A stretch of DNA of 64,000 bases from Theocolax elegans. Lineage: Eukaryota; Arthropoda; Insecta; Hymenoptera; Cerocephalidae. This document shows positions 5,591 through 49,100 of this stretch, piece after piece. The stretch covers positions 48,131,678 through 48,195,677 of the forward strand of contig CM047425.1 in NCBI GenBank assembly GCA_026168455.1. The letters are read 5' to 3'. Position numbers and translations under genes: made by a program. Within the stretch, counting starts at the first letter, position 1; each line of letters opens with the position of its first letter. The notes under the pieces are model-generated. The model was not told where the DNA came from. It was given only the letters and a program-made list of their open reading frames with translations, and did not search any database.

Positions 5591-5748
5591 ATCATTAACC
5601 TTTCTTGTTGTGATTTATGTGTACATACATTTAAAATAAGCGTAATATTCATACCTAAAATTATTCAAACAGTTATATACGTTATATTGATAAAAAATAC
5701 AAATATAGTATGCCGATAGTTTGCTTAATAAATTGTAGCTATACATTT

Positions 5749-6049: not shown

Positions 6050-7183
6050 TTTTTAATCATTGATAAATAATTAAATAATGTTACAAATTGAAGCTAAAAA
6101 ATGCATTATATTTATCATTTTAATAGATAAGGTTATTTTTATTTGTTATCTACTATTAAGTTACAATAAATAAGTGGCAGCATATGACTTATATATAAAT
6201 ATGCATTTCGATATCTTACCAAATAATTCATGACAAAATAAAGTTAAAAACATTGTTAATTTGCATCAAAACATAATACGAGAATGACTCACTTACGTGG
6301 TATGGGTACTTTTGCTTTAAAAAATGTGTATAACTGAAAAGCTAAAAAGCCGACGAAAATGATCGTCATAATTATTATACCGTACCTGTGAAAACTGTAG
6401 TCCAGAACCAAGAATTTGACAAACATTTAAATTATCAACATTAAACATAACCAATAATTGTCACTGACAGGTTCTGCTACGCGCACGCTTCTCGGCAAAT
6501 TAGATGATTGACGACCGTGTAAGATAAAAGATGACCGTTTAAGATAATGAAAAAAATAACAAGATCACGCGTGTCTCAATCATTCTTTCGTTTTCCCCTA
6601 TAGCTCTGTCTCAACTTTTTCGAGTAGACATATTTATATAGGAGACGAAATAAATATCGAAAAATACATATCCGAGTAAAAGAAAATTTGACATCTCAGA
6701 TATTTACATGGAGTTTTTATTTAAAGTATTACTAAATAATTTATCGAAAACTTAGTAAACTGAAAAAATATTCAAAAAGAAATAATATATGATATCAAAA
6801 GTTACGTAAACAACATATATATTAATATTCAAAAATAAAAAAACCGCAAGTGCAGTTAGATGTCTAATAGGTGCTAGCGCACATTATATTTGCGTTGGCT
6901 CCGCTACCGCGCACCTTGATGCATACCCACATACAAGTATAATTTAAATTACTTACATCGCTTTACCGATATTTAAGAAAGTATCAATCAAAAAACAATT
7001 AAAATATAAAATTGAATAAAAAGTTATATTATTGGTGTAATTATAGGTATTGAATCGATTAAAAACGATATCGAAGTGATTTTCTTAATAAAATGTATTA
7101 GGAGATTAGAGGTGAAAGACGCATAATGCTATATTAAAACCTATAGCTGTCAAGGACCCCACTCCTCAACATTATATATTACC
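6050..7183. other. Gene-free AT-rich region with a diverged repeat
   Basis: No coding region was recognised. The interval 6460-6930 resembles 12690-13160 in the same orientation: TAGACATAT-TATA-GGAGACGAAA, then about 390 bases from the first landmark a GC-rich palindromic patch (GGTGCTAGCGCAC ... GCGCACC). The remainder is low-complexity AT-rich sequence. Confidence 0.5.
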
Positions 7184-8987: not shown

Positions 8988-10790
8988 TCCGATTTCTTTT
9001 ATTTATCAGATAAAGAGTATTCTCCGCCTAAATCTAAAATTTCACTAGGTTTGTAATGGCGGCCTAAACGGTGACTCGACCCGTCTTTACAATCGTCCAT
9101 TAATTCGCTTTGATGTATACATCTGTCGTAAGCCGGCGCGTCGGGTGACGCTGGCGAGTCCGGTATCGACCGTATGTCGGCCAGGAAGGTCGAGGAGATG
9201 CTGGTCCGCTACGCCGCTGCCATAGTGGCTTCTGCGTTGGCTGAGGGAGGACACAGCACTAACCCCTCAAGTAGCTCTCTACGAGCCTGGCCCTGGCCTC
9301 GAGAAACTCGTGGCCAGAGTCGGACGGTTGGATGACCGCCGGTGAGCTCCGCTCACTTTATGAAGTTCTTAGTAGGGTTGGTCAAGATGGACCAACCCAG
9401 GAGCGAGCCGCTCTAACGGCGAGTTGTTCTCGGAGGAAGATGGAGGCGCCCTGTAGGTGGCAGTATGACGTCAGCGACCACTCGAGGTTTAACCTCGGCT
9501 TGCGCTGGACTGCCTCTAACGGTGTAGCCGCTATGGTAGGATCTCGCCTAGGTGGAGGTGGCGGTTCTACTCGGATCCTCGGAGTCCCTGGAGGTGGTAG
9601 ATCAAACCGCACCGTCCGCTGTACACCGTTGTCCACCAGCCAACCCTTGAGAGGAGTGAGTCGGGGTAGCGGTAGCTCCGTCTGGGTGCTGATGCTGCTG
9701 GCGGTTTGAGTGGCCTGGTTCTATTTGACGATGGTCTGGGCAGCGGCGGTCCGATTCCGGTACTCCAAGGTGATCCAGGCGGCGAAGTCTTGAACGAGGG
9801 AGAGCCCGATGTATTCGCTCTCGGTGAATTCGTACGGCATGGATGGGATGGGAGAAGGTGCTAATAATTATGACCAAACAAATGATCTTAATTTAAATTC
9901 GCCTTTATTGAAAACTGTATAGGTGGTACAGTAATTGCCCCGAAAGGTGGGGTACTCCCGCAGTGGGAGAAGGCGAGCTGCTGTACGCTCGAACGGGCCT
10001 ATACTTATAACGGTGCCTGCTTATCTTCATAACGGGAACGGCGCGATAAGGGGGTAGCCACCTTACGGCCGTTATTGGTACTACATACTATGTATAAGCT
10101 ATATGTATAAAGGCCGTGCGGTTCACGCCTATAGATAGTAAGCTTGCGAATAACACATCAAAATATGACGAAAGGTCAAGAGAATAGTTGCTGTTTAAAT
10201 CAGTATTTTTTGAATAATACACGTTTTTTCAAAATATTGTTAATTTATCGAATAAGTAACCTTGAATCATCAAAATAACTTATATATTATAGTTTTTTTG
10301 ATTAACATAAATGTCTTACCATATAGTTTATACATGGCGGGATCTATATGGCCATCGTAAACGTATAAAAAAAGTAACAAATTGTAAATTTTCGTACATT
10401 TCAGGCGTTACTTGCAGAATATAAAGCAGATAAAAAATTTTTTTCACTAAAAAATTATTGGTTTAAAGAGCAACTATTCTCTTCGCTTTTCTTCACATTT
10501 TGAGTGTACATTACAAAGCTCCATAAAAAGTTTCTGCAATTGAAAGTACTGAAATCAAAATAGCAACGGCAAGTATTTTATAGATATCAACAGAAATTTT
10601 TTATTTATTTATTAGAGTTTCACTTTCAGTAATTTTATTATTCATTATTAAATATTCCACGTTGAATTTGTATCTCTAGACAGTACTTTATATAAAACAC
10701 CTTCTACGAAGGTGTCAACATTCGCCAGTATGGTTTCCAATCACACTTTCAAAAATGTTATCTGATAAAAAAATCTTTAATTATTACTTC
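8988..10790. repeat. Tandem segmental duplication, unit 2 (1804 bp)
   Basis: Second copy of the block at 7184-8987. It ends at ttacttccatcc near 10795, where the first unit runs into the start of the second. The near absence of differences means either a very recent duplication or an assembly artefact. Confidence 0.9.
8999..9840 (-). pseudogene. Decayed GC-rich ORF of unknown family, copy 2
   Basis: Identical to 7195-8036, including the same in-frame TAG codons and the same frame change. The defects therefore predate the duplication. Confidence 0.45.
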
Positions 10791-11943
10791 CATCCTATTT
10801 CTACTTATATTTTGTTTAAACTCCATAAAAAGTGTTTGCAATAGAAAGTACTGAAATAAAAGCGAAATAATCGACAAGTATTTTTTGCCATACTATATTT
10901 TGTATTTTTGTGAATTAAACTTTTATATATTTTGCTTAAACTCTATAAAAAGTCTTGATTAATTTCCACAAAACTGATAAAAAGGAAACTTATTTTTTTT
11001 TATTCTCTTTAAATAAAGAATGTCTATCCTTCCCGTGCTTTACATCAGTAGATAACAATTTTATAGAATAATAATAATTCATTTGTGCAAAATTAATTTC
11101 CGCATAACTAATAAAAAGTAATTTCTCTCTTTTTTATGCTCTAATTCTACATCAGAGTATGTGGAAGCAACACTTTTCAATGCCAATAACAAAAACCATC
11201 GCATTGTTAAGTCGCTAAAAAATTTGTACGCTTCAGCGCAGACGTGAAATATTTTTTTCGTATTCTTCTTATATACTATTAAAAAAAATTTTTTTACTTT
11301 ATCTCTTGTTTAATGAAATTCATCTATTTTTAATTTATATTTTGTTATTATTAAAACTTAAAAATGTCTTAGCAATGAATGTCTTAGTCTAAATGTTTTT
11401 GCAACATACCCAAAATTTTCAGCTTTTAAATTGATTATTTAAAATTACAATGTTTGCGTTGAAAGTTTATGACTTATTTACTAATGATTAGCGTCTAAAA
11501 ATTGTTTACTCATAATTATTATTAAAAAAAATTATTATTTCTTAAAAGATCCAAACGCTATGCCCTTGGTTTTGTTTTAAGCTACCAGTATGAATTATTT
11601 AGATTTTTAATTTAATATATTAATTATAATATTTATGTTGAAAGGTGTAGATTCGTGTAATTTGTGTCTGATATTACGTTCAGGAAAATTTAGTCAAATT
11701 AAAAGATTCATCACACACTCTTAATCCCAAAGAGTAAAAACTGAACCTTAAATGAGTAATTTGTTGACTTTACTACTCTTTAAGTAACGTTAAAAATCCC
11801 ACAACTACACCTTCTAAACGACTAAACAACTAAAATTACTCTTTGAACAGTGGAAAATACGACAGGGTAAAAAGTAAAAATTTCAGTCCATTAAAGAAAG
11901 AAGAAAGTGGAACTATTGCTCTATTGAAAAGTATAAACTAATA
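10791..11943. other. AT-rich region, decayed repeats only
   Basis: Fragments of the preceding unit recur in diverged form (ctccataaaaagtgtttgca near 10820 and ctctataaaaagtcttg near 10941). No gene was recognised. Confidence 0.5.
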
Positions 11944-22456: not shown

Positions 22457-22961
22457 TTATAAAGATTTACCTGGTAATCCTTTAAAGTATACTTTCGATG
22501 GAACTCTTAAAGAATTGGTAGCAAATTGTAAACCCAAAACAAAAAAAATTTTTTATCAACAGCTGAGTATTCATGTAAATGAATTAGAAACAAAAAAACA
22601 GTTCAAATGTATATGGGTTGGTTCGTTATTGAAAGAAGAAAAAGAAATTATTTTATATCCAAATAAGAATGGTACTGTTGCTACTTTATTAGATGAAGCA
22701 AAAAAACAAGTCGAATTATCGGAAAATGGATCAGGACGATTAAGAATTTTAGAAATCGTTAGCAACAAATTACAACCTGGACCAAAAGAAGACGTACTAT
22801 TAGAAAGTTTAAACACAAATGGTTCTAAGATTTATAGAATTGAGGAAATACCTAAAGATGAATTGAATTTATGTGAAGATGAAATATTAGTTCCTGTTGC
22901 TCACTTTCATAAAGATGTATTTGCAACGTTTGGTATACCATTCTTTTTCAAAATAAAACAC
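22457..22961 (+). CDS. USP7: USP7 exon, C-terminal ubiquitin-like domains
   Basis: This exon encodes about 168 residues of ubiquitin carboxyl-terminal hydrolase 7, a nuclear deubiquitinase with a MATH domain, a catalytic core and five C-terminal ubiquitin-like (HUBL) domains. The segment begins YKDLPGNPLKYTFDGTLKEL, with one preceding base shared with the upstream exon. It continues through FYQQL, FKCIWVGSLLKEE, LRILEIVSNK, YRIEEIPKDEL and VPVAHFHKDVFATFGIPFFF. These blocks match the HUBL3-5 region of animal USP7. The borders are good: acceptor ttttattttcag at 22456 and donor CAC|GTAAGT at 22962, phase 0. The next exon that fits lies 19.5 kb away at 42457. No catalytic-domain exon was found upstream in this window. 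Confidence 0.93.
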
Positions 22962-23683
22962 GTAAGTTTTAATGTTTAAATAAATTATAAATATTTAAGA
23001 TAATAATAAATTTTTCCAATAAAAAAAGTACTTTGAAGATTTTATGTATACTATGAGTATTAATTACTGTGATAAGTGTCCCGAAGATAGAAAAGTTTAA
23101 AATGCTATTAAAGAATTAAATTGTCTCATTGTATACACGCTTTAGTAGTTTTTAATTTTTACGCCATTTAATCCTTTGCAAATTCAGATTCATTCCAGTC
23201 CATCTAATTTGAATTTTCTAGCAAAAGTCGATTAATTTATCTGTACTTATAATGAGTTTGAAAAGTCAATTTCGCAAGACATGGTAGCAAAGAGAGGACT
23301 ATCTCGTACGTACCTTAACTCGTCACGGGAAATGCGTAAACGGTTGGGAAGCGTCTATATTTTTTATTATATCATAACAATATTTTTATAATTTAATCTT
23401 GCCCCTTCTCAATTTTGAAATTTAATTCTTTCATGTACTAAGGAGTTTTTTAACTTAAAATAAAAATTAATATTTATGTTCTTCGTAATAATTGAAATAA
23501 TAGAGTACTACTGAAATCGAAAAATTTAATTTTATTAAAATAAAATATGGTAATATTTATGAAAATAGTGACATTGTGCCTAAAGTAATCATTCATTATA
23601 ATTACTGTTAGGTGAGTTTTTCAAACAGCTAAAATATTAATTTAAACAGTGTTGTTAGTTTTTTGAACTGTTATAATGGTTGA

Positions 23684-25329: not shown

Positions 25330-26830
25330 ATGAATACGTACGTATATGTCCATTTTCTTCACTTGATTTTATGAGATCTTATATACCATTAATTATTACA
25401 ATTGCACAACCCATAATTACTTTTTGTCAACAATCGTTTGTCGTGGATCCAGGTACAAACTGAATACATAAAAAGTTGAAGTTTCCAGGTCCACATCCAC
25501 ATCATATTATAATTTTGTATCTAAAATGAGCACTTTTCCGTGAGTTTCCCGTTCTACTGTAAATAATTATAAATAAACATTATCGTTTTCAGATTTATGT
25601 GTACCTGACATTATGCCAAACAACTACTGACTAAAAAATTTATTCTCGGAACCTGATTGTATAATTATTTTAATATTATAAGATGAACAAGTCTGCGTCT
25701 GTACGTACGTGTCCATTTTCTTTGATTAATGTTATGAGATCTTATACACCTTTAATTACTACAATTGCACCTGCAATAATTGCTTTTTATCACCAATTGT
25801 TTGTCGTGGAGCTAGGTACAAACTGAATACATAAAAAGTTATAATATCCACATCCACATCCACATTCACATTATATTAAAATTTTATATCGAAAATGAAC
25901 GCTTTTCTGTGAATCTCCCCTTCTACTGTAAATCATTATAAATAAACATTATCTTTATAGACTTAATGTTTACCTGATACTATGCCAAACAACTAATGAC
26001 TAAAAAAAATTTATTTTCGGAACGTGATTGTTTCGTTTTTTTAATATTATAAGATGAACATGACCGCGTACATACGTACGTACGTATCCATTTTCTCCAT
26101 TTAATTTTATGAGATCTTATATACCATTTATTATTACAATTGCACAACCGATAATTAATTTTTTGTCAACAATTGTTTATCGTGGAGCTAGGTACAAAAC
26201 TGAGTACATAAAAAGTTGAAGTTTCCAGGTCCACATCCACATCATATTATAATTTTGTATCTAAAATGAGCACTTTTCCGTGAATTTCCCGTTCTACTGT
26301 AAATAATTATAAATAAACATTATCGTTTTCAGATTTATGTGCACCTGACATTATGCCAAACAACTACTGACTAAAAATAATTTATTTTGTAACGTGATTG
26401 TTTAATTATTTTGATATAAGATGAACATGACCGCGTCCGTACGTACATAAGTACGTACGTACGTGTACATTTTCTTCAATTAACTTTAAGAAAGCTTATA
26501 TAACATTAATTAATACAATTGCACAACTGATAATTAATTTATTGTCAACAATTGTTTTTTGAAGTGCCAGGTACAAACTGAATACATTAAAAGTTATGGT
26601 ATCGACATCCACATCCAAATTATATTAACGTTTTGTATCTAAATGAACACTTTTCTGTGAATTCCCAGTTCTACTGGAAATAATTATAAATCATCATCAT
26701 GATTTTTAGAGTTAATGAGTACCTGACACTACGCCAAACAACTACTGACTAGAAAATTTATTTTCGGAACCTGATTGTATAATTATTTTAATATTATAAG
26801 ATGAACAAGTCCGCGTCCGTCCGTACGTAC
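25330..26830. repeat. Satellite, about 370 bp unit, four copies
   Basis: Units beginning gtacgtacgt-gtccattttctt are spaced 363, 375 and 377 bases apart (25348, 25711, 26086, about 26463). Each contains atgagatcttatata, gtacaaactgaatacataaaaag, aataattataaataaacatt and tttattttcggaac. Further units continue at 35189-35612 and 40040-40160, beyond the inserted LTR elements, so the elements landed in one array. Confidence 0.88.
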
Positions 26831-26904
26831 TGTCACGTTGCACTGGGGTTCAGGGTGCGGGAGGTCTCCAGGAGTACCGCAACCTCGGCAATTTCGATTT
26901 GGAC

Positions 26905-35077: not shown

Positions 35078-35180
35078 CAGGGTTGCCAGATGGCGATTTT
35101 TTCTCCTTGTTGCTCTTGCTTAATAAACATGAATATACGTAAGAGAGAAAAGGAAAAAAAATCGCCAACTGGTCACTCTG
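35078..35180. mobile_element. hAT-type MITE, 103 bp
   Basis: The TIRs CAGGGTTGCCAGATGGCGAT and, from the other end, CAGAGTGACCAGTTGGCGAT flank about 60 bases. A perfect 8 bp target duplication, CATACGTA, lies at 35070-35077 and 35181-35188. The 8 bp duplication and CAGGG-type ends indicate a hAT element. Confidence 0.88.
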
Positions 35181-35188
35181 CATACGTA

Positions 35189-35612
35189 CGTACGCATCCA
35201 TTTTCTTCACTTAATTTTATGTGATCTTATATACCATTTATTATTTCAATTAGACAACTGATAATTGAATTATTTTAACAATTGTTTGTCGTGTGTAAGG
35301 AACAAACGTAATAGACAAAAAGTTATAATATCTACATCAACTTCCAAATTATATTAACATTGTGTATCTAAATGAACACTTCTGTGAATTTCCCGTTCTA
35401 CTGTTAATAATTATAAATAAACATTATCTTTTTTAGACTTCATGTGTACCTGCCACTGTGCCAAACAATTACTGAATAAAAAATTTATTTTCGGAACCTG
35501 ATTGTATAATTATTTTAATATTGTAAGATGAACATGTCCGCGTCCGTACGTACATTCATACGTACTTACGTGTCCATTTTCTTCACTTATATTTATGAGA
35601 ACTTTTATATCA
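35189..35612. repeat. Satellite, fifth unit and start of a sixth
   Basis: Continuation of the 370 bp array of 25330-26830, interrupted by the copia element at 35613. Confidence 0.85.
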
Positions 35613-35704
35613 GTGCTTCACACTATACATGATTAGCGTACAATATTGAACTTGGTTTGAACTTGGGTATATAACAATATAAATGTACATATTATATTTC
35701 AACA
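35613..35704 (-). repeat. Truncated copia 3' LTR
   Basis: These 92 bases match the first 92 bases (minus strand) of the 5' LTR at 39949-40039 with one visible substitution (gcgtacaata against gcgtacgata). The rest of the LTR is absent. Confidence 0.85.
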
Positions 35705-35764
35705 CGCCTTCTTACATTTATATTGTATTATTTATTTAAACTTATTTGCTCTATATTATATTCA

Positions 35765-36370
35765 GTTTCATTCTCAATTTGTCAAACTTTTCTTTGCATA
35801 ATGCTTTAGTAAAAATATCCGCAACATTTTCATTTGAATCAATTTTTCACACTTCAATTAATTTTTCCTTTAGACTCTCATGTACAAAATGATAATGTAT
35901 TTCTATATGTTTTGAATTTTTCGTAAAATAACCATTATTTGCAATGTTTATTGCTCCCGAATTGTCTTCGTAAATTTTTATAGATTCATTTATACTTATG
36001 TCGAATATTTTTACTAATTCTCTATAAATTTTATCTCACTTACTACCTCAGATAATGCTACATACTCTGCTTACGTCGAAGCTTTGGTTATACATTTTTG
36101 TTTTCGAGATTTCCAATCGATCACATTCCCATACATTTTTAAAACATATCCAGTCGTAGATTTTCGATCATTATTATCGCCTGCCCAAGCGGCATCAACA
36201 TAGCAAGTTATAGTATCACAATTTTCATTTCTTTTATAGTGTAAATTTAAATCTTTTGTTAAGTACAAATATTTCAAAATTCGCAATGCGTATTTCCAAT
36301 GTGTTTCGCTATAACTATTTTGATATCTACTCAAATAATTAACACTATAACTTATATCTGGCCTTGTATT
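35765..36370 (-). pseudogene. Copia RNase H
   Basis: The minus strand shows SETHWKYALRILKYLYLTKD, then TCYVDAAWAGD and RKSTTGYV, which is the copia RNase H with its first catalytic Asp in CYVDAAWAG. In-frame stops interrupt it; the frame continues after position 36071 (AEYVALSEVV, EDNSGAINIANN, HIEIHYHFVHE) to about 35765. Confidence 0.85.
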
Positions 36371-36447
36371 TCAACTAATGTATAATAAAGCACCTATTAA
36401 ATTTCTATATTTTATATTTGACTCACAGCTTTCAGATTTCTCTAGCT

Positions 36448-37284
36448 TTAAATTTGTCTCCATAGGAGTACTATACAATCTACTGTTTTTATTTGATATT
36501 TCTCAACTAACGACTCTATATATTTCGTTTGGCTTAAAGTAAGCTTATTTTCTACATAATCATAAGTTATATTTATTCCAAGATACTCTTTGATTTCTCC
36601 TAAGTCTTTCATTTTAAATTTATCTGACAAGAGTTTCTTAACGCTTTGAATGTTTTCCTTACTTTTACTGCAAATTAACAAATCATCTACATAAATCAAA
36701 ATATAAATTTCATTTTTCTCTTTACCTTTTTTACATAAACATAAATCTACATTATTTCTTTTGAATCCTAATTTTGTAATACACTCACCAAAACACTCAT
36801 ACCAGTCTCTCGGACTTTCTCGTAATCCATACAACGCTTTTGACAATTTGTATACTCTATTTGTTTTATCTTCGTAACCTTTTGGTTGATTTACATATAC
36901 CTCAGAGTTTATTTTTCCATTAATAAATGCAGTTTCTACATCCATTTGTTCAATTTTTAATTCATTTTGACAACAATAAGAAAGTAAAATTTTTAAGGTT
37001 TGATTCTTTGCTACTGGAGCGTATATGTCATCAATTTCATCTGTTTGTTGAAAACCTGTTACACCTAGCCTAGCTTTATATCTATCATCAGATTTTCTCG
37101 TATAAACCCATTTAACATCTAAGACTTTTTTGTCTTTTATTCTTTCTACTAATATCCAGGTTGTATTTTTATTTATGCAATTTATTTCTTGATTCATTGC
37201 TTTTTCCCAATTTTTACTATCTATACAATTTATCGCCTCCTCAAATGTACCAGGCGTATCTACTCTACAGTAATTTACACACAT
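36448..37284 (-). CDS. Copia reverse transcriptase
   Basis: This 278-residue open frame covers an RVT_2-type reverse transcriptase. It begins TFEEAINCIDSKNWEKAMNQ, continues with DVKWVYTRK and KARLGVTGFQQ, motif A QMDVETAFINGKI, KALYGLRESPRDWYE, and motif C YVDDLLI near residue 200, ending ITYDYVENKLTLSQTKYIE. The expected RLVARG/CKARLVVQGF region has glycine for valine. A single in-frame TAA (37285) separates it from the integrase frame above, so the polyprotein is interrupted although the RT frame itself is open. Confidence 0.88.
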   Translation of the reverse strand: MCVNYCRVDTPGTFEEAINCIDSKNWEKAMNQEINCINKNTTWILVERIKDKKVLDVKWVYTRKSDDRYKARLGVTGFQQTDEIDDIYAPVAKNQTLKILLSYCCQNELKIEQMDVETAFINGKINSEVYVNQPKGYEDKTNRVYKLSKALYGLRESPRDWYECFGECITKLGFKRNNVDLCLCKKGKEKNEIYILIYVDDLLICSKSKENIQSVKKLLSDKFKMKDLGEIKEYLGINITYDYVENKLTLSQTKYIESLVEKYQIKTVDCIVLLWRQI

Positions 37285-38337
37285 TTATTTTTTATTACTT
37301 TGTTCTTCTTTATTTTCATCCGCGCTTTCAAAAACGCTATCATTTAACTCGTTTTCTGTATTTTCATCGTTTTCTTTTTTATTTTCATTTTCATCAAAAC
37401 TAATACATTTAATATTTTCTTCGATAAATTCAATATGCCTTGTAACTAATATTTTATTATTTAACAAAACTCTATAGCCAACATCACTATAGCCTAATAG
37501 AATTCCCATATCCGCTTTTTTAACCCATTTTGAAAATCTTTTTTGATCTGGCCTTTTTACAAAAACTTTACTCCCATATAAGCGTAAATGTTCAACATTC
37601 GGTTTCTTCTTAAAGAAAATTTCATACGGAGTTTTTCTCTCAATAGTATTAGCGAGCGTTCGATTTTTCAAATAAATAGCCGCACATATTATTTCAGGCC
37701 AAAACCGTTTGTGTACTTGTGCCTCTGTTAGTAAACATCGCGACATATCCATTATCGTTCTATTGAATCTTTCCGCTGTACCATTTAACTCATGTACATA
37801 GGCTGGACAATTATTCAAAATAATGCCTTTCTCTCTCGAAAATTTAGAGAAACGATTATTTAAATATTCTTTCCCGTTATCGCTCTCAGAATTTTTACTC
37901 GTTTTCCGGTTATATTTTCACTTTCATTCACATATTGTATTAAACAATTATATACCTCATCTTTAGTCTTAATACAATAAACCTTAGCTATTTTGCTATA
38001 ATCATCCATAAAAAAACAAAATAATTTTCCCCATTAAATCCAGTAGTTTTAAATGGACCGCAAACATCAGTATGTATAAGCTCCAAAATATCGTTTGCTC
38101 GAGTTCTATTATTTTTAAATGGAAGATTATGCATTTATTATCTATGCAAATTTTACACTTCATATATTCCGATTCAAGTTCATTAGGAATTCCCGTTAGC
38201 AACTGTTGTTTACATAATGTATTCAAATAACTAAAGTTTACGTACCCTAAGACTCTATGCCATCGTTCCTTTTGACTCATATTTTTATTTTTCTCGGCAC
38301 TATTCACATACGTCTCATATTTCAATTTACTTTTCAT
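37285..38337 (-). pseudogene. Copia integrase
   Basis: The N-terminal zinc region reads ERWHRVLGYVNFSYLNTLCK and CKICIDNKC (HHCC-type; the second histidine is tyrosine in GYVN). The catalytic core is shifted between about 38130 and 37820 (ELIHTDVCGPFKTTGFNGEN is readable in another frame). The C-terminal part at 37285-37818 is open: VHELNGTAERFNRTIMDMSR with the core Glu, FWPEIICAAIYLKNR and the GKRP-like tail FVKRPDQKRFSKW. An acidic, asparagine-rich linker leads to the stop before RT. It inserts the cDNA in active relatives; this copy is broken. Confidence 0.85.
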
Positions 38338-38369
38338 TTTGTATACTCGATTTTCTTTGTAAGCTACAG

Positions 38370-38632
38370 CTATTAATCTATTATTTTTATCTATAATTTT
38401 TGCATAATTTCCTTTTGAAACAATCGTATTTTCGTTATCGATTAATTTCCCAAAACTAATAAGATTCCAAAATAACTAACAACATTTCCAATCTTTGTTG
38501 CTTTTATAGACCGATTATCATCTAAATAAATATTTATCGGTTCTTTCAAGACAATACATTTTTCAAAGTAACTTTCATCATTTACAATATGATCCGAACA
38601 CCCGCTGTCTAATAACCAATGTATTTCGTTAC
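38370..38632 (-). pseudogene. Copia aspartic protease
   Basis: The minus strand reads EIHWLLDSGCSDHIVNDES, with the DSG active site in the usual copia context, followed by an unrecognised stretch and a frame break near 38460. It overlaps the end of gag in a different frame. Confidence 0.8.
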
Positions 38633-39562
38633 CTGACTGACTGAATTTTATTCTTTACATAATCTGTCGTTTGATCTTCTTCTTTTAACCCCCTGGCGCA
38701 GTATCCCGAGATATCTCGTCCAAACAAGGTTGTTACCGTAGCCAGTAGGACGAGATATCTCGTCCAGATGTTTTTGGCTATAACTTTTAACTGATACATT
38801 TTTAGAGTACGTACGATCCCGCAAAATAAAGCTGAGGACTTTCTCTTTAAGATTAGCTGAATTAAACTTTCGATTATATCCAATAACTTTTTCCAAAATT
38901 CCTCAAAAAAATGTAATAATTTAAAAGTAACTTTCTTTCCTGAACAAGCAAATAAAAAAAGTATGCATTTGGTGATGGAAAAGTCGGGGAAAACGCTTAC
39001 ACAGGGGGGTTAATGTATCGATCAAATCACCAATATAACTGTATGATTCTGGCAACGTGTTTAGTATATAATTTAATTTCTCTTTTTCACTTATTTTGGC
39101 GCCTGCGCTTTTCAATTCGTTCACAGCTTTTTCAAAGTCGGTGAAAAATGATGCTGTATCACCATAATTATTTAATATTATTTTTTCAATTCTGTTTCTG
39201 CACACAATTTGTAATGCTGTAGATTCTTTCAAATACATGCCGTCTAATTTCTTTATTATCTCATAGGCTGTTGTCTCTTCACAAATCGAGCTGTATATTA
39301 TATTAATAGCCTTTAAATCTTGTTCATCCCAATTTGCTGCATCTGTAATAGCTTTTTCCCTTGTAATCACTGTATCACATTTTTTCATCTTCATAAACAT
39401 TGTGATTCTCTTTTTCCACATGCTATAATTTTCTCCATCAAACACTGGGATATTTATCTCTGTTCTCTCGATATCGTATTCTTCAATATCGAACTTTCCT
39501 TCGTGTTCAGATATACTTTCTTCTTTTTTTACCTCTTCTTCAACAATTTTGTCTTTATCCAT
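38626..39562 (-). pseudogene. Copia gag, split by a MITE
   Basis: The ATG at 39562 opens an acidic N-terminus, then IPVFDGENYSMWKKRITMFM and later ALQIVCRNRIEKI and EKLNYILNTLPESYSYIGD. This is the UBN2-type copia Gag. At about 39010 the frame enters a TTAA-flanked MITE (38689-39009). After it, KEEDQTTDYVKNKIQ continues to a stop near 38629. Confidence 0.85.
38689..39009. mobile_element. piggyBac-type MITE, 321 bp
   Basis: The element is flanked by the TTAA target duplication (38685-38688 and 39010-39013), with matching termini CCCCCTG and CCCCCCTG. It lies inside copia gag, so it is younger than the copia insertion. It carries an 18 bp perfect palindrome, GGACGAGATATCTCGTCC, at about 38748-38765 and a near copy at 38706-38723. 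Confidence 0.82.
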
Positions 39563-39682
39563 AAACGTCTCGAATGTTCCTTCGGATTCACTTTACACAG
39601 ACACGTGGCTTCCTTTCTTCTTTCTTCTTAAATATTTCCTTATCTTCCCGAAGGTTGATAAGAAAATAATTAAAAATACTAA

Positions 39683-39698
39683 CCATGCTTTGCTACCA
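39683..39698 (-). promoter_or_regulatory. Copia primer-binding site
   Basis: Directly after the LTR end TCAACA the minus strand reads TGGTAGCAAAGCATGG, similar to the internal initiator-Met tRNA primer sites of many copia elements (TGGTATCAGAGC type). Confidence 0.65.
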
Positions 39699-40039
39699 TG
39701 TTGAGGTGTGGATATAAAATGGGGAGAATTTTATTTAATAATGATGTGGATTTATTTAATTACTACTTCTTATATACATCGACGTGTTTATTTGGTGAAG
39801 GCTCAAGCCAGAGAGCTCGAGAAGCAGTGAGAGCGTCGTATTGTCCGACGTCTCTCGCAGTATAGTCGTACTCACATACATACTGGAGAGGGGAGACTTT
39901 TAAGTGTGTCTCCACTCACACTCATTAGCACGCTCACTTATTTTGGCGTGCTTCACACTATACATGATTAGCGTACGATATTGAACTTGGTTTGAACTTG
40001 GGTATATAACAATATAAATGTACATATTATATTTCAACA
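39699..40039 (-). repeat. Copia 5' LTR, 341 bp
   Basis: Minus strand TGTTGA at the start and TCAACA at the end, a perfect inverted terminus. The low end abuts the primer site and the high end abuts satellite sequence. Confidence 0.85.
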
Positions 40040-40167
40040 CAACTATCTGACTAAAAATTTATTTTCGGAACGTGATTGTTTAGTTTTTTTAAAATTATAT
40101 GATGAACATTTCCGCGTCCGTACGTACATAAGTACGTACGTTCGTGACCATTTTCTTCTCTTAATTT
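40040..40167. repeat. Satellite fragment
   Basis: The end of one 370 bp unit (gactaaaaatttattttcgg) and the start of the next (gtacgtacg-gaccattttcttctcttaattt), cut at 40168 by the LTR-like segment. Confidence 0.8.
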
Positions 40168-40463
40168 TGTAACGGAGTGAATCTTTGCCGGAGTCTTGCT
40201 CAGATTCCAGGTTTCGAATCAAGTAGGGAATTTGAAATAATTGTGACTGATTTATAATAACAAATGCCTTAGCATATTTATTTGAAAATAGTGCTCCTCC
40301 TAACACTGTAAGAACAATAAATAAATACATATGATTAACTTACGAGGTTACAATAGATGACTTAATATTAGACCTAGTCGGACGCGGTTCTACCCCGTAC
40401 AGGTTTTAACACGGTTTACGGTTCGTTTCGGGACCTCTGGGAAGTTGTCCGTCTCGGAATCCT

Positions 40464-41073
40464 TGATCCCCATGTGTTCACGGGGATCGTGGATTGCCCT
40501 AGTTTGGATGTCTGCCACGTGTGCTCACGAGGCAGAGTAGTCCTCGACGATCGGGATGTAATCGGATAGGAGCGGGTTCTCGGTAGGCGGCTACGAGTGC
40601 TCACGTACTCCGGCTGTCGGTTAATCGGGTTATCTCTAGTTCTTATCGCGTGTGCTAACGAGACAAATTCTAGGGATACCTTGACGGTCGGGATGTAGGT
40701 GGATCGGAGTAAGCCCTCGGTAGGCGGTTACGTGTGCTCACGTACCTCGGCCGCCGGTAGGTTGATTTGTCTCTGGTCCTTAAAACGTATGCTCACGAGA
40801 TAAGTCCCAGAGGGTCCGTCCAGGCGATTGCGACGTCGACGTGTGCTCACGACGATGCTGCAGGCAGGATAAAGTCACCACGTGTGCTCACGAGGTGATA
40901 GCAGGTACGGTGTGGTAACGGGTTTACGGTTGTCTATTACCACGTGTGCTCACGAGGTAATAGCGGGTAACGGTACGGTAACTGGTTTACGAACGTGTGC
41001 TCATGGACGTAACCCAGGTATCTGCCCGAGGCTAAAAAAAAGAGATCCTGAACATGTGCTCACGATCAGATCG
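40464..41073. repeat. Array of eleven hairpins with near-invariant tip and variable stems
   Basis: A motif close to A-CGTG-TGCT-CACG-A recurs about every 60 bases: near 40471, 40517, 40592, 40648, 40730, 40785, 40839, 40879, 40941, 40992 and 41051. CGTG and CACG pair, leaving a TGCT loop. In most copies the flanks are also complementary, but different each time: GATCC/GGATC, TCTGCC/GGCAGA, CGTCG/CGATG, TCACC/GGTGA, CTATTACC/GGTAATAG, TTACG/CGTAA and CTGA/TCAG. Two copies add outer stems (CTCTGG/CCAGAG and ATCTCTAG/CTAGGGAT). Compensatory change with an unchanged tip points to selection on structure. There is no ORF. Confidence 0.85.
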
Positions 41074-41084
41074 GTGCCATTGTC

Positions 41085-41130
41085 TGTTGCAGACTGACTC
41101 TAGCGGGTTTCGGTGCGGCTTATATACCCG
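41085..41130 (-). promoter_or_regulatory. TATA plus arthropod initiator
   Basis: On the minus strand TATATAAG starts at 41126 and TCAGTC lies with its A at 41095, 31 bases downstream, the standard spacing of a TATA box and the arthropod initiator TCAKTY. Transcription would run through the hairpin array. Confidence 0.72.
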
Positions 41131-41218
41131 ATTTGCGGGGACGCGCATGCGTAGAATGCGATTCCCGCACTCCGCGACACTAGCACTACGCACCGAGGGA
41201 CGTACCATGACATTGTCA

Positions 41219-42456
41219 TAATCCCTGTGTATAAATTCTTAATGTAAAAAGTCTTAATTTATTCATTATTATCTGGCCGCCTTATTTATTAACCTCTTAA
41301 AGACGGGGATTTTTACGTTAAAACTTGACTTTTTCTTTACACAATATTTATGCATAAAATGAAAGAATATGTCACACGAAGTGCCAATGTTAAAAATCTA
41401 ATTTGGCGAGTTAGAAATATTTTCCCTCATATTTAAATGCGCTGAATACGAAAAAAACATGAAAAATGTTCGGAAGAGACCTCTGATCTTGAGAATTGGA
41501 TTTCAAGATCAAATTCATTACTTGTACTATTTTAGCTCGAGAATAATGTTTCTACGTTTCTTTATGCATGAGTCCCCTTGCCTCTCACGTTGGGGTGCTT
41601 TATTTGAGTACCATTACCTCACACCTCTAAATATTTGACTTTATGATAATGTATCTTCTGTGTATATTTTTTTAAACATGGTGAAAATGAAACCTTTAAA
41701 ATGCGTTTCACCATACGCAATACTATTTGTTACGTACTCGAAACATCAAAATACGTCGGTATACCAATTTTCAGTTCGAAATACCAAATAAAAAATTTTA
41801 CCTTGAAATTACTATTTTAAGATCACATATGCTTTCTAGAATGATGACACTATGTTTCCTACATTCAACAGATAATGTTACCTCTGAAAATATTGGAAAA
41901 TAATATGATACCAAAATGGTCGATATATCTGAAAAGATCCATCCTTGAAAGGTTAATATGGATTGTTGGTACGTAGGAGATCGTCCAATCTCCGCTACCG
42001 TGACCTGCGAGATCGACACCTCGTCCTTGCGATGACGAAAGGAACATGTTCTTTGAGACCGTTTCCGATTTTAATTAGATATATAACTTATGCGTCGTAT
42101 CAGGACGAGATATCGCGTTACAAATATATAAATATTGTTTTTCGTAAATAAAGAGTTATTGATAGCTTATTTGCTATTGTAACATTCACATTATCAAGTC
42201 CCATTTCTGTTTACTTCTATTAACCAGTTCAATAGTAAATTTTTTTAATACTTAATTTAGAGTCCTTGCAATATTAGCTTTTTATTTTAATTCAGAAAAA
42301 TTCTTCATTATTCGGAATTTATCTCTGTAAATATTGAAAGTATTCTGTAGAATTATTTATATGAGGAATTTTGCATGTTTTAGAATGTAAAATTTATTAT
42401 ATCTATGACTGCATTATGTACTTAGTATCTTATTAATACAATGTTCTTTTCACTAG
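41219..42456. other. Rest of the USP7 intron, no gene
   Basis: AT-rich sequence. A TTAA followed by CCTCTTAAAGACGGGG at 41287 and GGACGAGATATCGCG near 42104 recall the piggyBac-type MITE at 38689, but paired ends could not be established. Confidence 0.45.
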
Positions 42457-42706: not shown

Positions 42707-43262
42707 GTAAGTTTTCTACTCTTTTGATATTACCATTAATTTAATTAGAGAATTATTTACTAAACTTCATAACTTTTACGAGTATATGTAGCAGATTAAG
42801 ATTATGTAAATATGTAATAAATTAGTGTTACTACTATAATAGTAACAGATTTTGGATAATGGTTACTATATCAGAAAAAATATTCATAACGTATCTCTGA
42901 AATTAAAACCTTTAAATTGTAACAATTTATTTATTATTAACTTTTCCTACTCAACTTCCTATTCATCAAAATTATTAATTACATTGTTTATGCTTTAGAA
43001 CTTTATTTTAATTTTAACAAATATATTTTTTCGACCTCAGGCCACGAAATGAATTTCCAGTGAAATGAATGAAATTCATTTCGTGGTCTGTATAGAGATC
43101 GCGAAATACCAAATCCTTGCCGTAGGCCGCTAAATAAAATGAATATAGATTAGAAGTGAGAGAGCGAGTCTGTCATCCAAAGAAAGATATAAATAATAAA
43201 TAATGTATACCAGAGCGAATGATGACGTCAAAACAAAACAAAATAGATACCTTCTAAATATA
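42707..43262. other. Intergenic or last-intron sequence with a perfect hairpin
   Basis: No gene was seen. At 43042-43086 a 16 bp stem (CCACGAAATGAATTTC / GAAATTCATTTCGTGG) encloses a 13-base loop. Confidence 0.6.
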
Positions 43263-44212
43263 CAGGGTGATCCAGAAACATAGGTAACATATATATATTC
43301 CGGTTCAGGAAATTAATGCGAGGATAATCCCGTCGGAATTTTTAAAAAATATTAATTAGGCGAGGCGTAATTGATTTTTTAAATGGGCAAATCAGAGGCC
43401 GGATTAGAGAAGATTAGTGTGCGGCGTTGCCGCGCGAGACTAATGCAACAGGTGAACGAGCGAAGCGGCCGAGGCGCCTGAACATAGCTGATGCGTATAG
43501 CAGAAACGAAGATCGCGAAAGCGAATGAATCGCAAAATATATTTTACGAGATTGATTGTATGAATCAAATGGATAATCAAGAAAATGATTTTTATTTAAG
43601 TTTAAATTAAACCGCAGACTAATAAATTCATTACTACTATTATTAATCCATTTACTAAATCTATGATATGCGTGCGTTATAAATATGAGACTATTACAGT
43701 TTTTAATCTCATCGTATTTACATTAATTTATTTGAAACCTTTATGACGAATTTTAAGACAATAAAATTTTGAACTGAATTAAGTTTTGGGTACAATATAG
43801 CCAATAAGTACGGTTACCATAAAGATATATCGCTACATATTGGAAATATATTAGTTAATTTTGCAAGTATATTGACAATAATATTGCTAGTGAAATAATT
43901 CCTAGTCCGTGTAAAATGAATTTAGCTCAAGCCTCAATTCTCTGCTTAAAAAACAATACCACCGCGAACACTCTCCGATGCCCGCGCACATCAAATTTTG
44001 TACTTGCGGAGTAAGCCCGCCGCGGACGCTCTCGGACGTTCACACTGCAAGAGCAACCGTGCTCGAAAGAAGTTACTTTGTTAAAATTACAATTCATCCA
44101 CGTTTTCATCCACTTGAGGTAATAAAATATCATGGATTCATCGGTAGTATTGACAATTTGGTAAATGTTACGAAGTTATGGAAGACACGAAACATATTGG
44201 TGAAATATTGAT

Positions 44213-44455
44213 AATACTTTGGCACCATATTGGCAATATATTGACAATACTTTGGCAACATATTGGCAATATATTGACAATACTTTGGCAACATATTGGC
44301 AATATATTGGCAATACTTTGACAACATATTGGCAATATATTGACAATACTTTGGCAACATATTGGCAATATATTGACAATACTTTGGCAACGTATTGGCA
44401 ATATATTGACAATACTTAGGCAACATATTGGCAATATATTGATAATACAAATAAT
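44213..44455. repeat. 33 bp minisatellite, left arm
   Basis: About seven units of aatactttggcaacatattg followed by gcaatatattgac. The unit is divisible by three, so all frames stay open on the minus strand (repeating YCQYIANMLPK). Confidence 0.85.
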
Positions 44456-45002
44456 AAATACTTAACGAAATACACTTTAAACTGCAAGATTTAAGCCAGA
44501 CTTTAAGCCATACTATCACAAACACTTTCAGACATACATACAGCCATACAATTACCCATTCTAAAATATCAACTTTTCATTCCTTGTAAATACCCTCTGT
44601 ATTGGTTGGTACGACAGGCCAACTTAAGAAAAATCAACAAAGAACAGATATTTTAGATAAGAAAATAACATGAAAATATCTATTACTACCCTCCTGTATT
44701 TAGGTGGTTGATCAAACTTCTCACACAGGTTTGTGCTACTAATGCAAGAACGAGAAGACGATTTAAAGCAATCAACGAAAGACAAATATTTTAGAATAAC
44801 AAAATAACTCTTTGATTTTTCTTATGTCGGTTTTTATTACCAACCAATACAGAGGGTAGTTACAAGGAATGAAAAGTTGATCTTTTAGTATGGCTAATTG
44901 TATGGCTGTATGTATGTCTGAAAGTGTTTGTGATAGTATGGCTTAAAGTCTGGCTTAAATCTTGCAGTTTAAAGTGTATTTCGTTAAGTATTTATTATTT
45001 GT

Positions 45003-45260
45003 ATTATCAATATATTGCCAATATGTTGCCTAAGTATTGTCAATATATTGCCAATATGTTGCCAAAGTATTGTCAATATATTGCCAATTCAATATATTGC
45101 CAATATGTTGTCAAAGTATTGCCAATATATTGCCAATATGTTGCCAAAGTATTGTCAATATATTGCCAATATGTTGCCAAAGTATTGTCAATATATTGCC
45201 AATATGTTGCCAAAGTATTGTCAATATATTGCCAATATGTTGCCAAAGTATTATCAATAT
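45003..45260. repeat. 33 bp minisatellite, right arm
   Basis: Inverted counterpart of 44213-44455 with a small rearrangement near 45083 (ccaattcaatatattgcc), so the two arms have begun to differ here. Confidence 0.85.
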
Positions 45261-46214
45261 TTCACCAATATGTTTCGTGTCTTCCATAACTTCGTAACAT
45301 TTACCAAATTGTCAATACTACCGATGAATCCATGATATTTTATTACCTCAAGTGGATGAAAACGTGGATGAATTGTAATTTTAACAAAGTAACTTCTTTC
45401 GAGCACGGTTGCTCTTGCAGTGTGAACGTCCGAGAGCGTCCGCGGCGGGCTTACTCCGCAAGTACAAAATTTGATGTGCGCGGGCATCGGAGAGTGTTCG
45501 CGGTGGTATTGTTTTTTAAGCAGAGAATTGAGGCTTGAGCTAAATTCATTTTACACGGACTAGGAATTATTTCACTAGCAATATTATTGTCAATATACTT
45601 GCAAAATTAACTAATATATTTCCAATATGTAGCGATATATCTTTATGGTAACCGTACTTATTGGCTATATTGTACCCAAAACTTAATTCAGTTCAAAATT
45701 TTATTGTCTTAAAATTCGTCATAAAGGTTTCAAATAAATTAATGTAAATACGATGAGATTAAAAACTGTAATAATCTCATATTTATAATGCACGCATATC
45801 ATAGATTTAGTAAATGGATTAATAATAGTAGTAATGAATTTATTAGTCTGCGGTTTAATTTAAACTTAAATAAAAATCATTTTCTTGATTATCCATTTGA
45901 TTCATACAATCAATCTCGTAAAATATATTTTGCGATTCATTCGCTTTCGCGATCTTCGTTTCTGCTATACGCATCAGCTATGTTCAGGCGCCTCGGCCGC
46001 TTCGCTCGTTCACCTGTTGCATTAGTCTCGCGCGGCAACGCCGCACACTAATCTTCTCTAATCCGGCCTCTGATTGGCCCATTTAAAAAATCAATTACGC
46101 CTCGCCTAATTAATATTTTTTAAAAATTCCGACGGGATTATCCTCGCATTAATTTCCTGAACCGGAATATATATATATATATATATGTTACCTATGTTTC
46201 TGGATCACCCTGTA

Positions 46215-47490
46215 TAATCTAAATTTATAATCCTTCTAGCCCCCGTTACCTTAACCCGATTCATTCCTACCCACATATCATTAACTTCCTGTTTTGTCAT
46301 CCGACATCGTACAACATTAGAAGTAAAAAATTTTTTATGTTAACTACAATTTAACGGCCTTTGGGCGAAAAAATAAATAAAAATACTATGATACTATGAA
46401 ATTACCTTATGGTCCTAATCAATTCGCCGAAAAATGCTACACACTGAGGTAACAGATAACAATATAAACCTTGTAAACTAGTTTATGCCAAATTAAGATT
46501 TGTAAGTATTTGCAACAGTTATTCTTACTGGTACCAATCAATAAATACGATTGAGTAGTAACTAGTTTACTATCGTTGGTTTCCAATTCTGTGTACATTA
46601 AAACATTGTTTAAACAATGTTAATTATGAAACGCATTCAATAATCTATGATGTATGTTTGCATACCGATACAAGGATTGTATACCAAAAAATTACAACCT
46701 AGACCTAATTATGCGGCGTGGGCTCATTAGCTAATCTGCGACGCAGATAAAAAGTCTCATATCGTCAATTAGATACGCTGTGAAGAAGATTTTTTTTCTG
46801 ATGAGCGCTGCGTTACACACGACCGATGGTCTGCGAGTACTGCCAGGTTACGGGGGTCCCAAATTCAATTTTATGACTGAATTATCGACCTGCCGTCGAT
46901 ATAGTAGGTTTCATTATCAGTATAATGTTGGTAGATGGCGTAATTATACTAACATTGTGATTTAATTTTGTGTTAATTTTTTTTCTGTAACTTTAAAAAT
47001 GCCTTCTTAGCGTGTAAAATATCTATAAACAGAAATTGTGTACTTAAATTTTTTATGAATTCAGTTACGTACTGAAATATTTTTAATACCTTAATCCGAT
47101 AAATTCAGGATTGTTTACTCATAATAGAGTTGCCGGCAACCCGGCAGACAGTACTGCACTTGTATAGTTAGTAGTCATTGATATTTTTACTTACTATGGA
47201 GTAATAACAATTTTAATAAATTGTTGAATTTTTATAACAATACGAATCGGAAGCTATAATCTATATACCAACTCTAAAAATTTAGTATACAATAAAAATT
47301 TCCGTGTATTTATTTGCACATTTGAATTAGAAAATTGCTTTTTTTCTGTACAAACTTATTATTAAAAAAAATCCTGTGCAATTTACAATTGCAATTACCT
47401 GCTGATATGAACTGAGAGGTTAGGGGAGCACTAACCTTTCCACCGGTAATATAACTATATAAATCACTGTAAGCTTCTACGGCTAATTAA
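46215..47490. other. No gene recognised
   Basis: AT-rich sequence with only short frames that have no family signal, including one at 46780-46965. Confidence 0.45.
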
Positions 47491-48619: not shown

Positions 48620-49100
48620 AAAGCAATATGAATTTTAATTGGTATATTCGAGCTAGTTTGTGTTGCTCAATATGCACGAGCGATTTAGAGTCAAAATTTA
48701 AAATAGAATGCTAATGTTGAAATTTGATAAGCAAGAAGGGGGGATGTCTAAAGTAAATATCGAGAAATAAAGACTTCAAGGTACAACGTGCGTGGAATCG
48801 TCGGGTTCCCGGTAGCCAAGTGGTAAGGCAACTGCCTGGTAAGCAGGAGACCGTCGGTTCGATCCCGACCTGTGGACGTTGATTTTTTTCTTTTTCGATC
48901 ATTTCTTAATTAATTTTCTAATACCTCTGGCAACATTTAAAACTTAGCGATATGCAAGTAAGTTGCTAATAAAGAGGGTTTTGTGCAATATTTGAAAAAA
49001 TATTGAGCAACACAAATTAGCTCGTAAATACCGATTAAAATTCATATAATACTTTATAATAAATACATGCACGAGCGATTTAGAGTCAAAATTTAAAATA
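48620..49100. repeat. Inverted-repeat unit enclosing a tRNA-like gene
   Basis: The sequence gaattttaattggtatattc..tttgtgttgctcaat (48629-48672) is inverted at 49003-49048. The word tgcacgagcgatttagagtc, followed by aaaatttaaaat, is repeated directly at 48674 and 49068. The tRNA-like sequence lies between. Confidence 0.65.
48806..48876 (+). tRNA. tRNA-like gene, anticodon GGT by position (Thr)
   Basis: D arm GCC-AAGTGGTAA-GGC, anticodon loop CTGGTAA on a CTGC/GCAG stem and T arm GTCGG-TTCGATC-CCGAC are all present. The boxes TAGCCAAGTGG and GGTTCGATCCC fit Pol III promoter consensus. The acceptor stem pairs with one mismatch and two wobbles, and a T7 run follows at about 48884. A GGT anticodon is unusual for a nuclear tRNA-Thr of animals, so a pseudo-tRNA or SINE head is at least as likely as a working gene. 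Confidence 0.5.

What the first reader, a model, noticed from the sequence alone, without database searches (positions are those of the whole stretch)
40464..41073. Array of covarying hairpins with a near-constant CGTG-TGCT-CACG tip
Eleven motifs spaced roughly 40-80 bases apart share the tip A-CGTG-TGCT-CACG-A, while their lower stems differ in sequence but are mostly self-complementary (CTATTACC/GGTAATAG, TCTGCC/GGCAGA, TCACC/GGTGA, GATCC/GGATC, CTGA/TCAG and CGTCG/CGATG with a wobble). The first copy even replaces the A-A mismatch with a C-G pair. Simple tandem duplication would keep the stems identical; independent stems around a fixed tip suggest selection on RNA or cruciform structure. 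Possible roles (inference) are a packaging or regulatory RNA of an LTR element, or an insulator-like protein-binding cluster as in the gypsy 5' region. I know of no described element with this layout.
Basis: partly seen in the sequence, partly recalled or inferred. Interest (0 to 1): 0.88.

Follow-up and report, generated by a model that had tools for sequence, protein, structure and literature searches.

The report
Hairpin array inside retrotransposon LTRs
A family of insect jumping genes carries, at what looks like the very start of its RNA, a row of up to about twenty small hairpins that share one tip while their stems change in matched pairs, which suggests a multi-copy docking site for a protein.

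Summary
In detail: eleven CGTG-TGCT-CACG tips (40471-41064) on differing, self-complementary stems (86.9% of cells paired, 67.2% shuffled, 0/500). The array is not a lone RNA gene nor part of the adjacent copia element. It lies in one LTR (40168 to at least 41174; solo or truncated) of a Ty3/gypsy-type retrotransposon whose sense strand is the window's minus strand. The host genome (658 Mb) holds 5,853 exact tips against 32 for the reversed pattern and 351 LTR promoter cores against 0. In 51 LTRs, most chosen for an intact core, an initiator follows the TATA box in register in 48, the first tip starts 31 nt later in 49, and no tip lies in about 300 nt upstream. These LTRs carry 1-20 tips. Stem variants found in five or more LTRs mostly keep Watson-Crick pairing; rarer ones mostly do not. 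Loop, orientation and a central mismatch stay nearly fixed. Most likely a multivalent protein-binding RNA array (Gag or a host factor). Binding was untested, and the data do not separate RNA from single-stranded DNA. Plant Sirevirus LTR palindromes are closest, but differ in place and design.

The parts
40168..41174 (-). LTR (solo or truncated) of a Ty3/gypsy-type retrotransposon; sense strand is minus; sense 3' end ...GTTACA at 40168; U3 side beyond 41174 not resolved
   Evidence: matches to other LTRs begin at 40161-40168 and run to 41174; GTTACA followed by TGGCGC (primer site) in 8 other LTRs
41119..41126 (-). TATA box TATATAAG of the LTR promoter
   Evidence: core with at most 3 mismatches 351 times in the genome, reversed control 0
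41092..41097 (-). initiator TCAGTC, predicted start of transcription A at 41095
   Evidence: CAGTCT in register with the TATA box in 48 of 51 LTRs, GAGTCT in 3; no transcript data
41043..41074 (-). hairpin H11 (tip 41053-41064), first in the RNA, tip 31 nt after the predicted start
40984..41015 (-). hairpin H10 (tip 40994-41005)
40933..40964 (-). hairpin H9 (tip 40943-40954), stem CTATTACC/GGTAATAG
40871..40902 (-). hairpin H8 (tip 40881-40892), stem TCACC/GGTGA
40830..40861 (-). hairpin H7 (tip 40840-40851)
40776..40807 (-). hairpin H6 (tip 40786-40797), stem partly degraded in this copy
40721..40752 (-). hairpin H5 (tip 40731-40742)
40639..40670 (-). hairpin H4 (tip 40649-40660), stem partly degraded here, CTTATC/GATAAG in L238
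40584..40615 (-). hairpin H3 (tip 40594-40605)
40508..40539 (-). hairpin H2 (tip 40518-40529), stem TCTGCC/GGCAGA
40461..40492 (-). hairpin H1 (tip 40471-40482), stem GATCC/GGATC, last in the RNA
40277..40282 (-). AATAAA, possible poly(A) signal downstream of the array
   Evidence: read; AATAAA occurs after the array in only 2 of 43 LTRs, so weak

Best explanation
The array is the leader (R region) of the LTR of an insect Ty3/gypsy-type retrotransposon. Because R is copied at both ends of such an element's RNA, every genomic RNA would carry the array twice. Each unit is a hairpin with an asymmetric recognised tip (sense: CGUG-AGCA-CACG over an unpaired U.U) on a stem whose main requirement is to pair. 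I propose that the array works as a multivalent docking platform for a protein that reads the tip. The most likely protein is the element's own Gag (which has a CCHC zinc knuckle), concentrating and packaging the RNA; next a host RNA-binding factor. Copy number (1-20 in the LTRs examined) can vary because binding is by avidity. Shown: LTR identity, sense strand, promoter register, position of the array, covariation, nearly fixed tip and fixed orientation. Inferred: transcription, the poly(A) site, RNA (not cDNA) as the folding molecule, protein binding, and Gag as the partner. My own split: hairpin array constrained in an LTR leader 0.9; acting as RNA bound by a protein 0.55; that protein being Gag 0.35.
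For: Sense strand: gag, protease, reverse transcriptase, RNase H and integrase domains lie in that order downstream of the array-bearing LTR, on the strand opposite to the tip as first read (L180, also L177). Position: initiator in register with the TATA box in 48 of 51 LTRs, first tip 31 nt after it in 49 of 51; no tip on either strand in about 300 nt upstream of the promoter core in the 51. Structure: covariation in the window's 11 units. For 12 main-family arm pairs found in at least 5 LTRs plus the window's 11, 88 of 115 stem pairs (positions 2-6) are Watson-Crick against 40.2 +/- 4.8 permuted (maximum 60 in 20,000), with all four pair types at positions 2, 4 and 5. Fixed tip: loop AGCA in 568 of 603 units and U.U below the tip in 531 of 603 (units were picked by allowing at most 2 tip mismatches). 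518 exact tips in one orientation, 0 inverted. Gag knuckle: CWRCKQRGHNRNQC in L174, L177 and L180.
Against: No strand preference: mean folding excess is equal on both strands. One-sided stem states: in variants found in at least 5 LTRs 3 cells are A.C and 0 G.U in the sense strand, against what sense-RNA selection would favour; in variants found in 2-4 LTRs 8 are G.U and 4 A.C. Variants found in 2-4 LTRs are fully paired in only 2 of 13. In folds of the whole array the mean tip-pair probability is only about 0.35 over 14 LTRs (0.66 in the window copy), because units can pair with one another. One of five covariation measures does not exceed shuffling. No transcript, binding or small-RNA data. 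LTRs with 1-5 tips exist, so the full array is not shown to be needed.
Confidence: 0.55

Rival explanations
1. Double-stranded DNA function: the tip is a 12-bp interrupted dyad bound by a host DNA-binding protein (enhancer, insulator or silencer cluster just downstream of the LTR promoter, as the Su(Hw) cluster of Drosophila gypsy, recalled). Stems would be incidental.
For: The tip is a dyad CGTG-N4-CACG kept better than its surroundings (with the picking bias named there; tip 0.22, spacer 0.32 divergence). Folding signal is equal on both strands. PMC10760457 (passages read) notes that TE cis-regulatory regions are often arrays of repeats, sometimes palindromic.
Against: A bound dyad does not need complementary but changing stems. 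All tips examined lie after the predicted start and none in the 300 nt upstream, an odd place for a pure enhancer cluster.
Confidence: 0.2
2. Mutational by-product: a minisatellite of imperfect palindromes that grows by reverse-transcriptase slippage, with stems kept complementary by template switching between the arms (quasipalindrome correction), without a function of the hairpins.
For: Template switching can create and maintain hairpins with compensatory changes (PMC8794818, passages read). Array length varies widely. One unit in L179 is a perfect 20-bp palindrome, as correction would make. No consistent G-U preference.
Against: Correction through the tip should erase the central mismatch and invert the loop. 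The U.U mismatch is kept in 531 of 603 units, 1 of 603 is a perfect palindrome, and no exact tip is inverted (518 to 0). But PMC8794818 also finds loop inversions rare in rRNA, where loops are conserved, so correction in the stem plus selection on the tip remains possible.
Confidence: 0.17
3. Splicing or silencing device: the sense tip holds GTGAGC, like a 5' splice site, and a TTACAG acceptor-like site lies near the LTR 3' end; or the hairpins feed host small-RNA silencing as proposed for Sirevirus palindromes.
For: TTACAG after the array in 37 of 43 LTRs, in 36 of these 195-199 nt from the LTR end. Maize small RNAs map in excess to palindrome clusters of Sireviruses (PMC10760457, passages read, citing Bousios et al. 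2016).
Against: Bases -1 and -2 do not fit the recalled splice-site consensus, the GT lies inside the stem, and most copies compared are young, so conservation of the acceptor says little. Being a silencing target does not explain why the element keeps the structure.
Confidence: 0.06

Closest known systems
Repeated palindromic motifs (RM) in LTRs of plant Sireviruses (Ty1/copia), PMC2829016 (passages and section 9 read)
   Same: 8-32 short palindromic motifs per element, clustered in the LTR, mostly high identity, suspected regulation
   Different: Sirevirus LTR motifs lie upstream of the TATA box, are plain dyads without a fixed asymmetric loop over a mismatch, and are near-identical within an element; plant copia elements, not insect gypsy
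Multiple dispersed packaging signals of RNA viruses and HBV (PMC6281560, PMC7612645; only the abstract openings in the listing were seen)
   Same: many stem-loops presenting one recognised loop motif
   Different: dispersed along a whole genome, bound by coat or core protein in tests; here clustered in R of a retrotransposon, partner unknown
Drosophila gypsy Su(Hw) insulator cluster (recalled)
   Same: array of repeated protein-site-like motifs near the 5' end of a gypsy-type element
   Different: linear DNA sites without covarying stems, placed after the LTR rather than in R (recalled)
Ty3/gypsy-type retrotransposon proteins of ants (closest named match Lasius niger, P0006)
   Same: RNase H-integrase region 54% identical over 93% of the query; an unnamed protein (P0001, source ena) is 61% identical over 96%
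   Different: whether those elements carry the array could not be examined

Membership tests
Ty3/gypsy-type LTR retrotransposon (family of longer copies) | gag, then protease, RT, RNase H, integrase in this order on one strand | tested here: met
   L180 raw coordinates 5336-6448 gag, 6352-7434 protease and RT, 7898-9472 RNase H, H2C2, rve; they are separate open stretches, not one frame
Ty3/gypsy-type LTR retrotransposon (family of longer copies) | paired LTRs and a tRNA primer site next to the 5' LTR | tested here: met
   4 pairs measured of 5 tried: three pairs 6.2-6.6 kb apart 98.2-99.2% identical, one pair 1.8 kb apart 99.9%; GTTACA followed by TGGCGC in 8 LTRs; assignment to tRNA-Lys is recalled
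Ty3/gypsy-type LTR retrotransposon (family of longer copies) | the window copy has its own coding region | tested here: not met
   window 36000-46000 matches the family only at 40161-41174; it is an LTR only, solo or truncated
Ty3/gypsy-type LTR retrotransposon (family of longer copies) | target-site duplication around the window copy | tested here: inconclusive
   the U3 end is not resolved, so the flanks could not be compared
Sirevirus repeated motifs | palindromes upstream of the TATA box | tested here: not met
   0 tips in about 300 nt upstream of the promoter core in 51 LTRs; array starts 31 nt after the initiator in 49 of 51
Sirevirus repeated motifs | host element is a Ty1/copia Sirevirus | tested here: not met
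   integrase follows RNase H; gypsy-type domains
Packaging-signal array | many stem-loops with one loop motif and free stems | tested here: met
Packaging-signal array | loop bound by the capsid or Gag protein, needed for assembly | not testable with these tools
   no binding data; a CCHC knuckle lies in the gag frame
gypsy-type insulator | binds Su(Hw)-like zinc-finger protein and blocks enhancers | not tested
   no motif or protein test made; the one paper search for it failed
Known structured RNA family (Rfam 15) | match above gathering score | tested here: not met
   the only match in the window is a tRNA at 48806-48877

The most novel reading that the evidence does not exclude
An insect retrotransposon family has evolved, within R, a self-expanding array of RNA aptamers: each new unit keeps an oriented tip with a U.U mismatch and re-diversifies its stem (which may also reduce pairing between units, as in the window's subfamily), so that one RNA presents many equivalent docking sites to Gag or to a captured host protein. 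This would be a retroelement counterpart of viral packaging-signal arrays and of protein-titrating RNAs.
Probability: 0.3. Interest if true: 0.75.

Novelty: new variant of a known kind. Interest (0 to 1): 0.57.

Why it matters
To my knowledge (recalled, not searched) how LTR retrotransposons of animals mark their RNA for packaging is poorly known. This recently active, many-copy family offers a natural experiment: hundreds of LTRs, with 1 to 20 near-identical hairpin tips in the 51 examined, on changing stems. If the tip binds Gag, copy number against transposition success can be read from the genome. If it binds a host factor, the array is a ready-made bait. It also gives a clean case for asking whether compensatory stem changes come from selection or from template switching.

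Tried and rejected
Part of the adjacent copia element: rejected. That element is 35613-40040 with 93-bp LTRs; the array lies outside, beyond a piece of a 371-bp repeat. A search of viral contigs with that copia RT fragment found no relative; it taught nothing about the array.

A stand-alone long non-coding RNA gene with its own promoter: my first reading from the TATA and initiator; dropped when the genome search showed thousands of tips and the regions fetched held them in LTRs. Two of the first twelve regions (L184, L185) hold a single tip and were not studied.

One search counted a 10-base core in the 165 loci held then: 84 had none, the highest count was 4 (L138). A few are evenly spaced (L138 every 45, L150 every 51, L130 every 32 bases) and look like ordinary tandem repeats; the others look like chance. 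None was studied further.

Known RNA family: none at gathering score. Literature: the 12-base tip is in no held paper. Searches showed no insect LTR hairpin array among the rows listed (11, 11 and 10; one search had 114 papers). Bousios et al. 2016 is not held. A Ty1/Ty3 packaging review (PMC4974528) had only a reference-list hit for the terms asked.

Strand test by wobble pairs and by folding: no preference. For the window copy alone the sense strand folds further from shuffles (z -4.0 against -2.2). SAP-like look of the Gag N-terminus: not supported by Pfam at E up to 1.

Divergence of tip, stem and spacer between the window copy and 9 relatives: tip 212/969 = 0.22, stem 241/794 = 0.30, spacer 716/2256 = 0.32. 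Copies L240-L242 do not align well past H4, so this is only weak support for tip conservation.

Full report
What is there. The eleven motifs stand at the coordinates given. Ten of the 11 match the 12-base tip with at most 1 mismatch where shuffles give 0.03. The stems are self-complementary beyond chance in two tests. Exchanging arms among units never reached the observed pairing in 20,000 trials (60 pairs against 30.2 +/- 5.2, maximum 54). The pair count on the 11-row alignment gave 86.9% standard pairs against 67.2% and a covariation score of 0.564 against 0.195, each 0 of 500 shuffles, and lower values in all six slid controls; one measure, the number of pairs changed on both sides, does not exceed shuffling (5 against 4.2). 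Rfam has no family matching here at gathering score.

What it is. The neighbouring copia element (minus strand, 35613-40040) has its own 93-bp LTRs and ends before the array. A search of the host genome (658 Mb, 1,277 contigs) found 5,853 exact tips against 32 for the reversed pattern. Regions fetched around some of them show arrays inside direct repeats (L174, L177, L181, L182) next to gag-pol stretches, i.e. LTRs. Window homology begins at 40161-40168 (the LTR letters TGTAACGG, reverse complement of the LTR 3' end, start at 40168) and runs to 41174. No internal sequence of the family adjoins it, so the window copy is a solo or truncated LTR. Longer copies encode, on the strand opposite to the tip as first read, Gag (PF03732, with a CCHC knuckle in the same frame), aspartyl protease, reverse transcriptase, RNase H and integrase in Ty3/gypsy order, in separate open stretches. 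Of 751 related proteins (120 listed) the best are unnamed (61% identity over 96%); the closest named one is from the ant Lasius niger (54% over 93%), followed by other ants, a firefly, flies and others. The host is probably an ant or a relative; this was not proven.

Where the array sits. In the 62 loci L174-L235, 58 promoter cores were found and 51 were distinct. Fifty of these loci were chosen because they carry the core, so core conservation itself is not evidence. In register with the TATA box, CAGTCT stands at the expected start in 48 of 51 and GAGTCT in 3, and the first tip begins 31 nt later in 49 of 51 (25 and 38 nt in the other two). No tip on either strand lies in about 300 nt upstream of the core. 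Main-family arrays are 34-bp repeats that end, towards the promoter, in three further hairpins, most often spaced 37, 78 and 56; tips per LTR run from 1 to 20 (some LTRs are cut or decayed). The window copy belongs to a diverged subfamily with 11 individually different hairpins, all shared with L236 (90% identical) and in part with eight other copies fetched. Three LTR pairs 6.2-6.6 kb apart are 98.2-99.2% identical and one pair 1.8 kb apart 99.9% (gaps not counted), so the family moved recently. AATAAA stands after the array in only 2 of 43 LTRs, so the poly(A) site, and with it the exact extent of R, is not established.

Do stem changes keep pairing? Among 592 units (window copy left out), variants found in at least 5 LTRs are fully Watson-Crick at four stem positions in 9 of 13; variants in 2-4 LTRs in 2 of 13; variants in one LTR in 11 of 57. 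By cells the Watson-Crick share is 48 of 52, 35 of 52 and 143 of 228. Widespread forms include ATCC/GGAT, ATCT/AGAT, ACCC/GGGT and GTCC/GGAC. Taking 12 arm pairs found in at least 5 LTRs plus the window's 11, 88 of 115 stem pairs are Watson-Crick against 40.2 +/- 4.8 when arms are exchanged, and positions 2, 4 and 5 show all four pair types. Between subfamilies the promoter-proximal hairpin has CTGA/TCAG in one and CTGG/CCAG in the other. In L244, hairpin 1 shows C-G to T-A on both sides. Decayed copies of the window's subfamily break pairs in several hairpins, as dead copies would.

What stays fixed. Loop AGCA (sense) 568 of 603; unpaired U.U below the tip 531 of 603 (tips with more than 2 changes were not counted, so this is inflated). 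Exact tips in sense orientation 518, inverted 0. One unit (L179) is a perfect palindrome, as arm-copying correction would produce, but the form has not spread. A fixed asymmetric tip on free stems is what a protein that reads the tip of a hairpin would leave behind.

RNA or DNA? Position after the predicted start and absence upstream favour RNA. Folding excess is on average the same on both strands (14 LTRs, 30 shuffles each, mean z -2.72 and -2.76); for the window copy it is larger on the sense strand (-4.0 against -2.2). One-sided states in the commonest variants are A.C rather than G.U in the sense strand (3 to 0), in variants of 2-4 LTRs the reverse (4 to 8). So RNA is inferred, not shown; hairpins in single-stranded cDNA, or stem correction by template switching combined with selection on the tip alone (mechanism in PMC8794818, passages read), remain open.

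Proposed working. RNA starts at the initiator; the hairpins follow at once and would recur at the 3' end because R is repeated. Many equal tips give avidity, so copy number can drift. The partner is most likely Gag, for packaging or assembly, by analogy with multiple packaging signals that share a loop motif (PMC6281560, PMC7612645: abstract openings in the listing). A host factor is the alternative.

Comparison. Sirevirus LTRs (PMC2829016, passages and section 9 read) carry palindromic motifs (8-32 per element by the text) but upstream of TATA, as plain dyads, in plant copia elements. I file this as a new variant of a known kind: repeated palindrome-like motifs in LTRs, here placed in the transcribed leader and built as covarying hairpins with an oriented tip. 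I saw no description of such an array in insects in searches, which cover only the held library and the rows listed.

Noticed in passing
40307-40312 (minus strand): TTACAG after a pyrimidine-rich stretch, acceptor-like; a TTACAG stands after the array in 37 of 43 LTRs, in 36 of them 195-199 nt from the LTR end. With GTGAGC in the sense tip it could point to splicing of the leader.
   Followed up: partly
35613-40040: copia-type element on the minus strand with very short LTRs (93 bp, 98.9% identical), inserted in a 371-bp repeat also found at 25334-26834 and 35179-35612
   Followed up: partly
41287-41958: about 670-bp stretch with inverted ends (27-nt arms, 74% complementary) next to TTAA; piggyBac-like MITE by look only
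   Followed up: no
867-3203: ORF with reverse transcriptase and GIY-YIG endonuclease domains, Penelope-like by recall
   Followed up: no
7171-10802: 1.8-kb tandem duplication, 99.6% identical
   Followed up: no
43259-46216: 1.4-kb inverted repeat (96.7%) whose arms hold a 33-bp minisatellite
   Followed up: no
22515-22979: exon-like ORF for the C-terminal domain of the ubiquitin protease USP7 (PF14533, E 1.6e-42)
   Followed up: no
L206/L207 (C1:49068024 and 49069787) and C3:293820/295522: promoter cores only about 1.7 kb apart, the first pair 99.9% identical over 1,208 bases: could be short derivatives with little internal region that still carry the array; internal part not examined
   Followed up: partly
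48805-48878: tRNA-Thr-like gene with anticodon GGT, unusual for a eukaryote nuclear genome (recalled)
   Followed up: no
L138, L150, L130: bacterial stretches with a 10-base tip core repeated 3-4 times at even spacing (45, 51, 32 bases)
   Followed up: no
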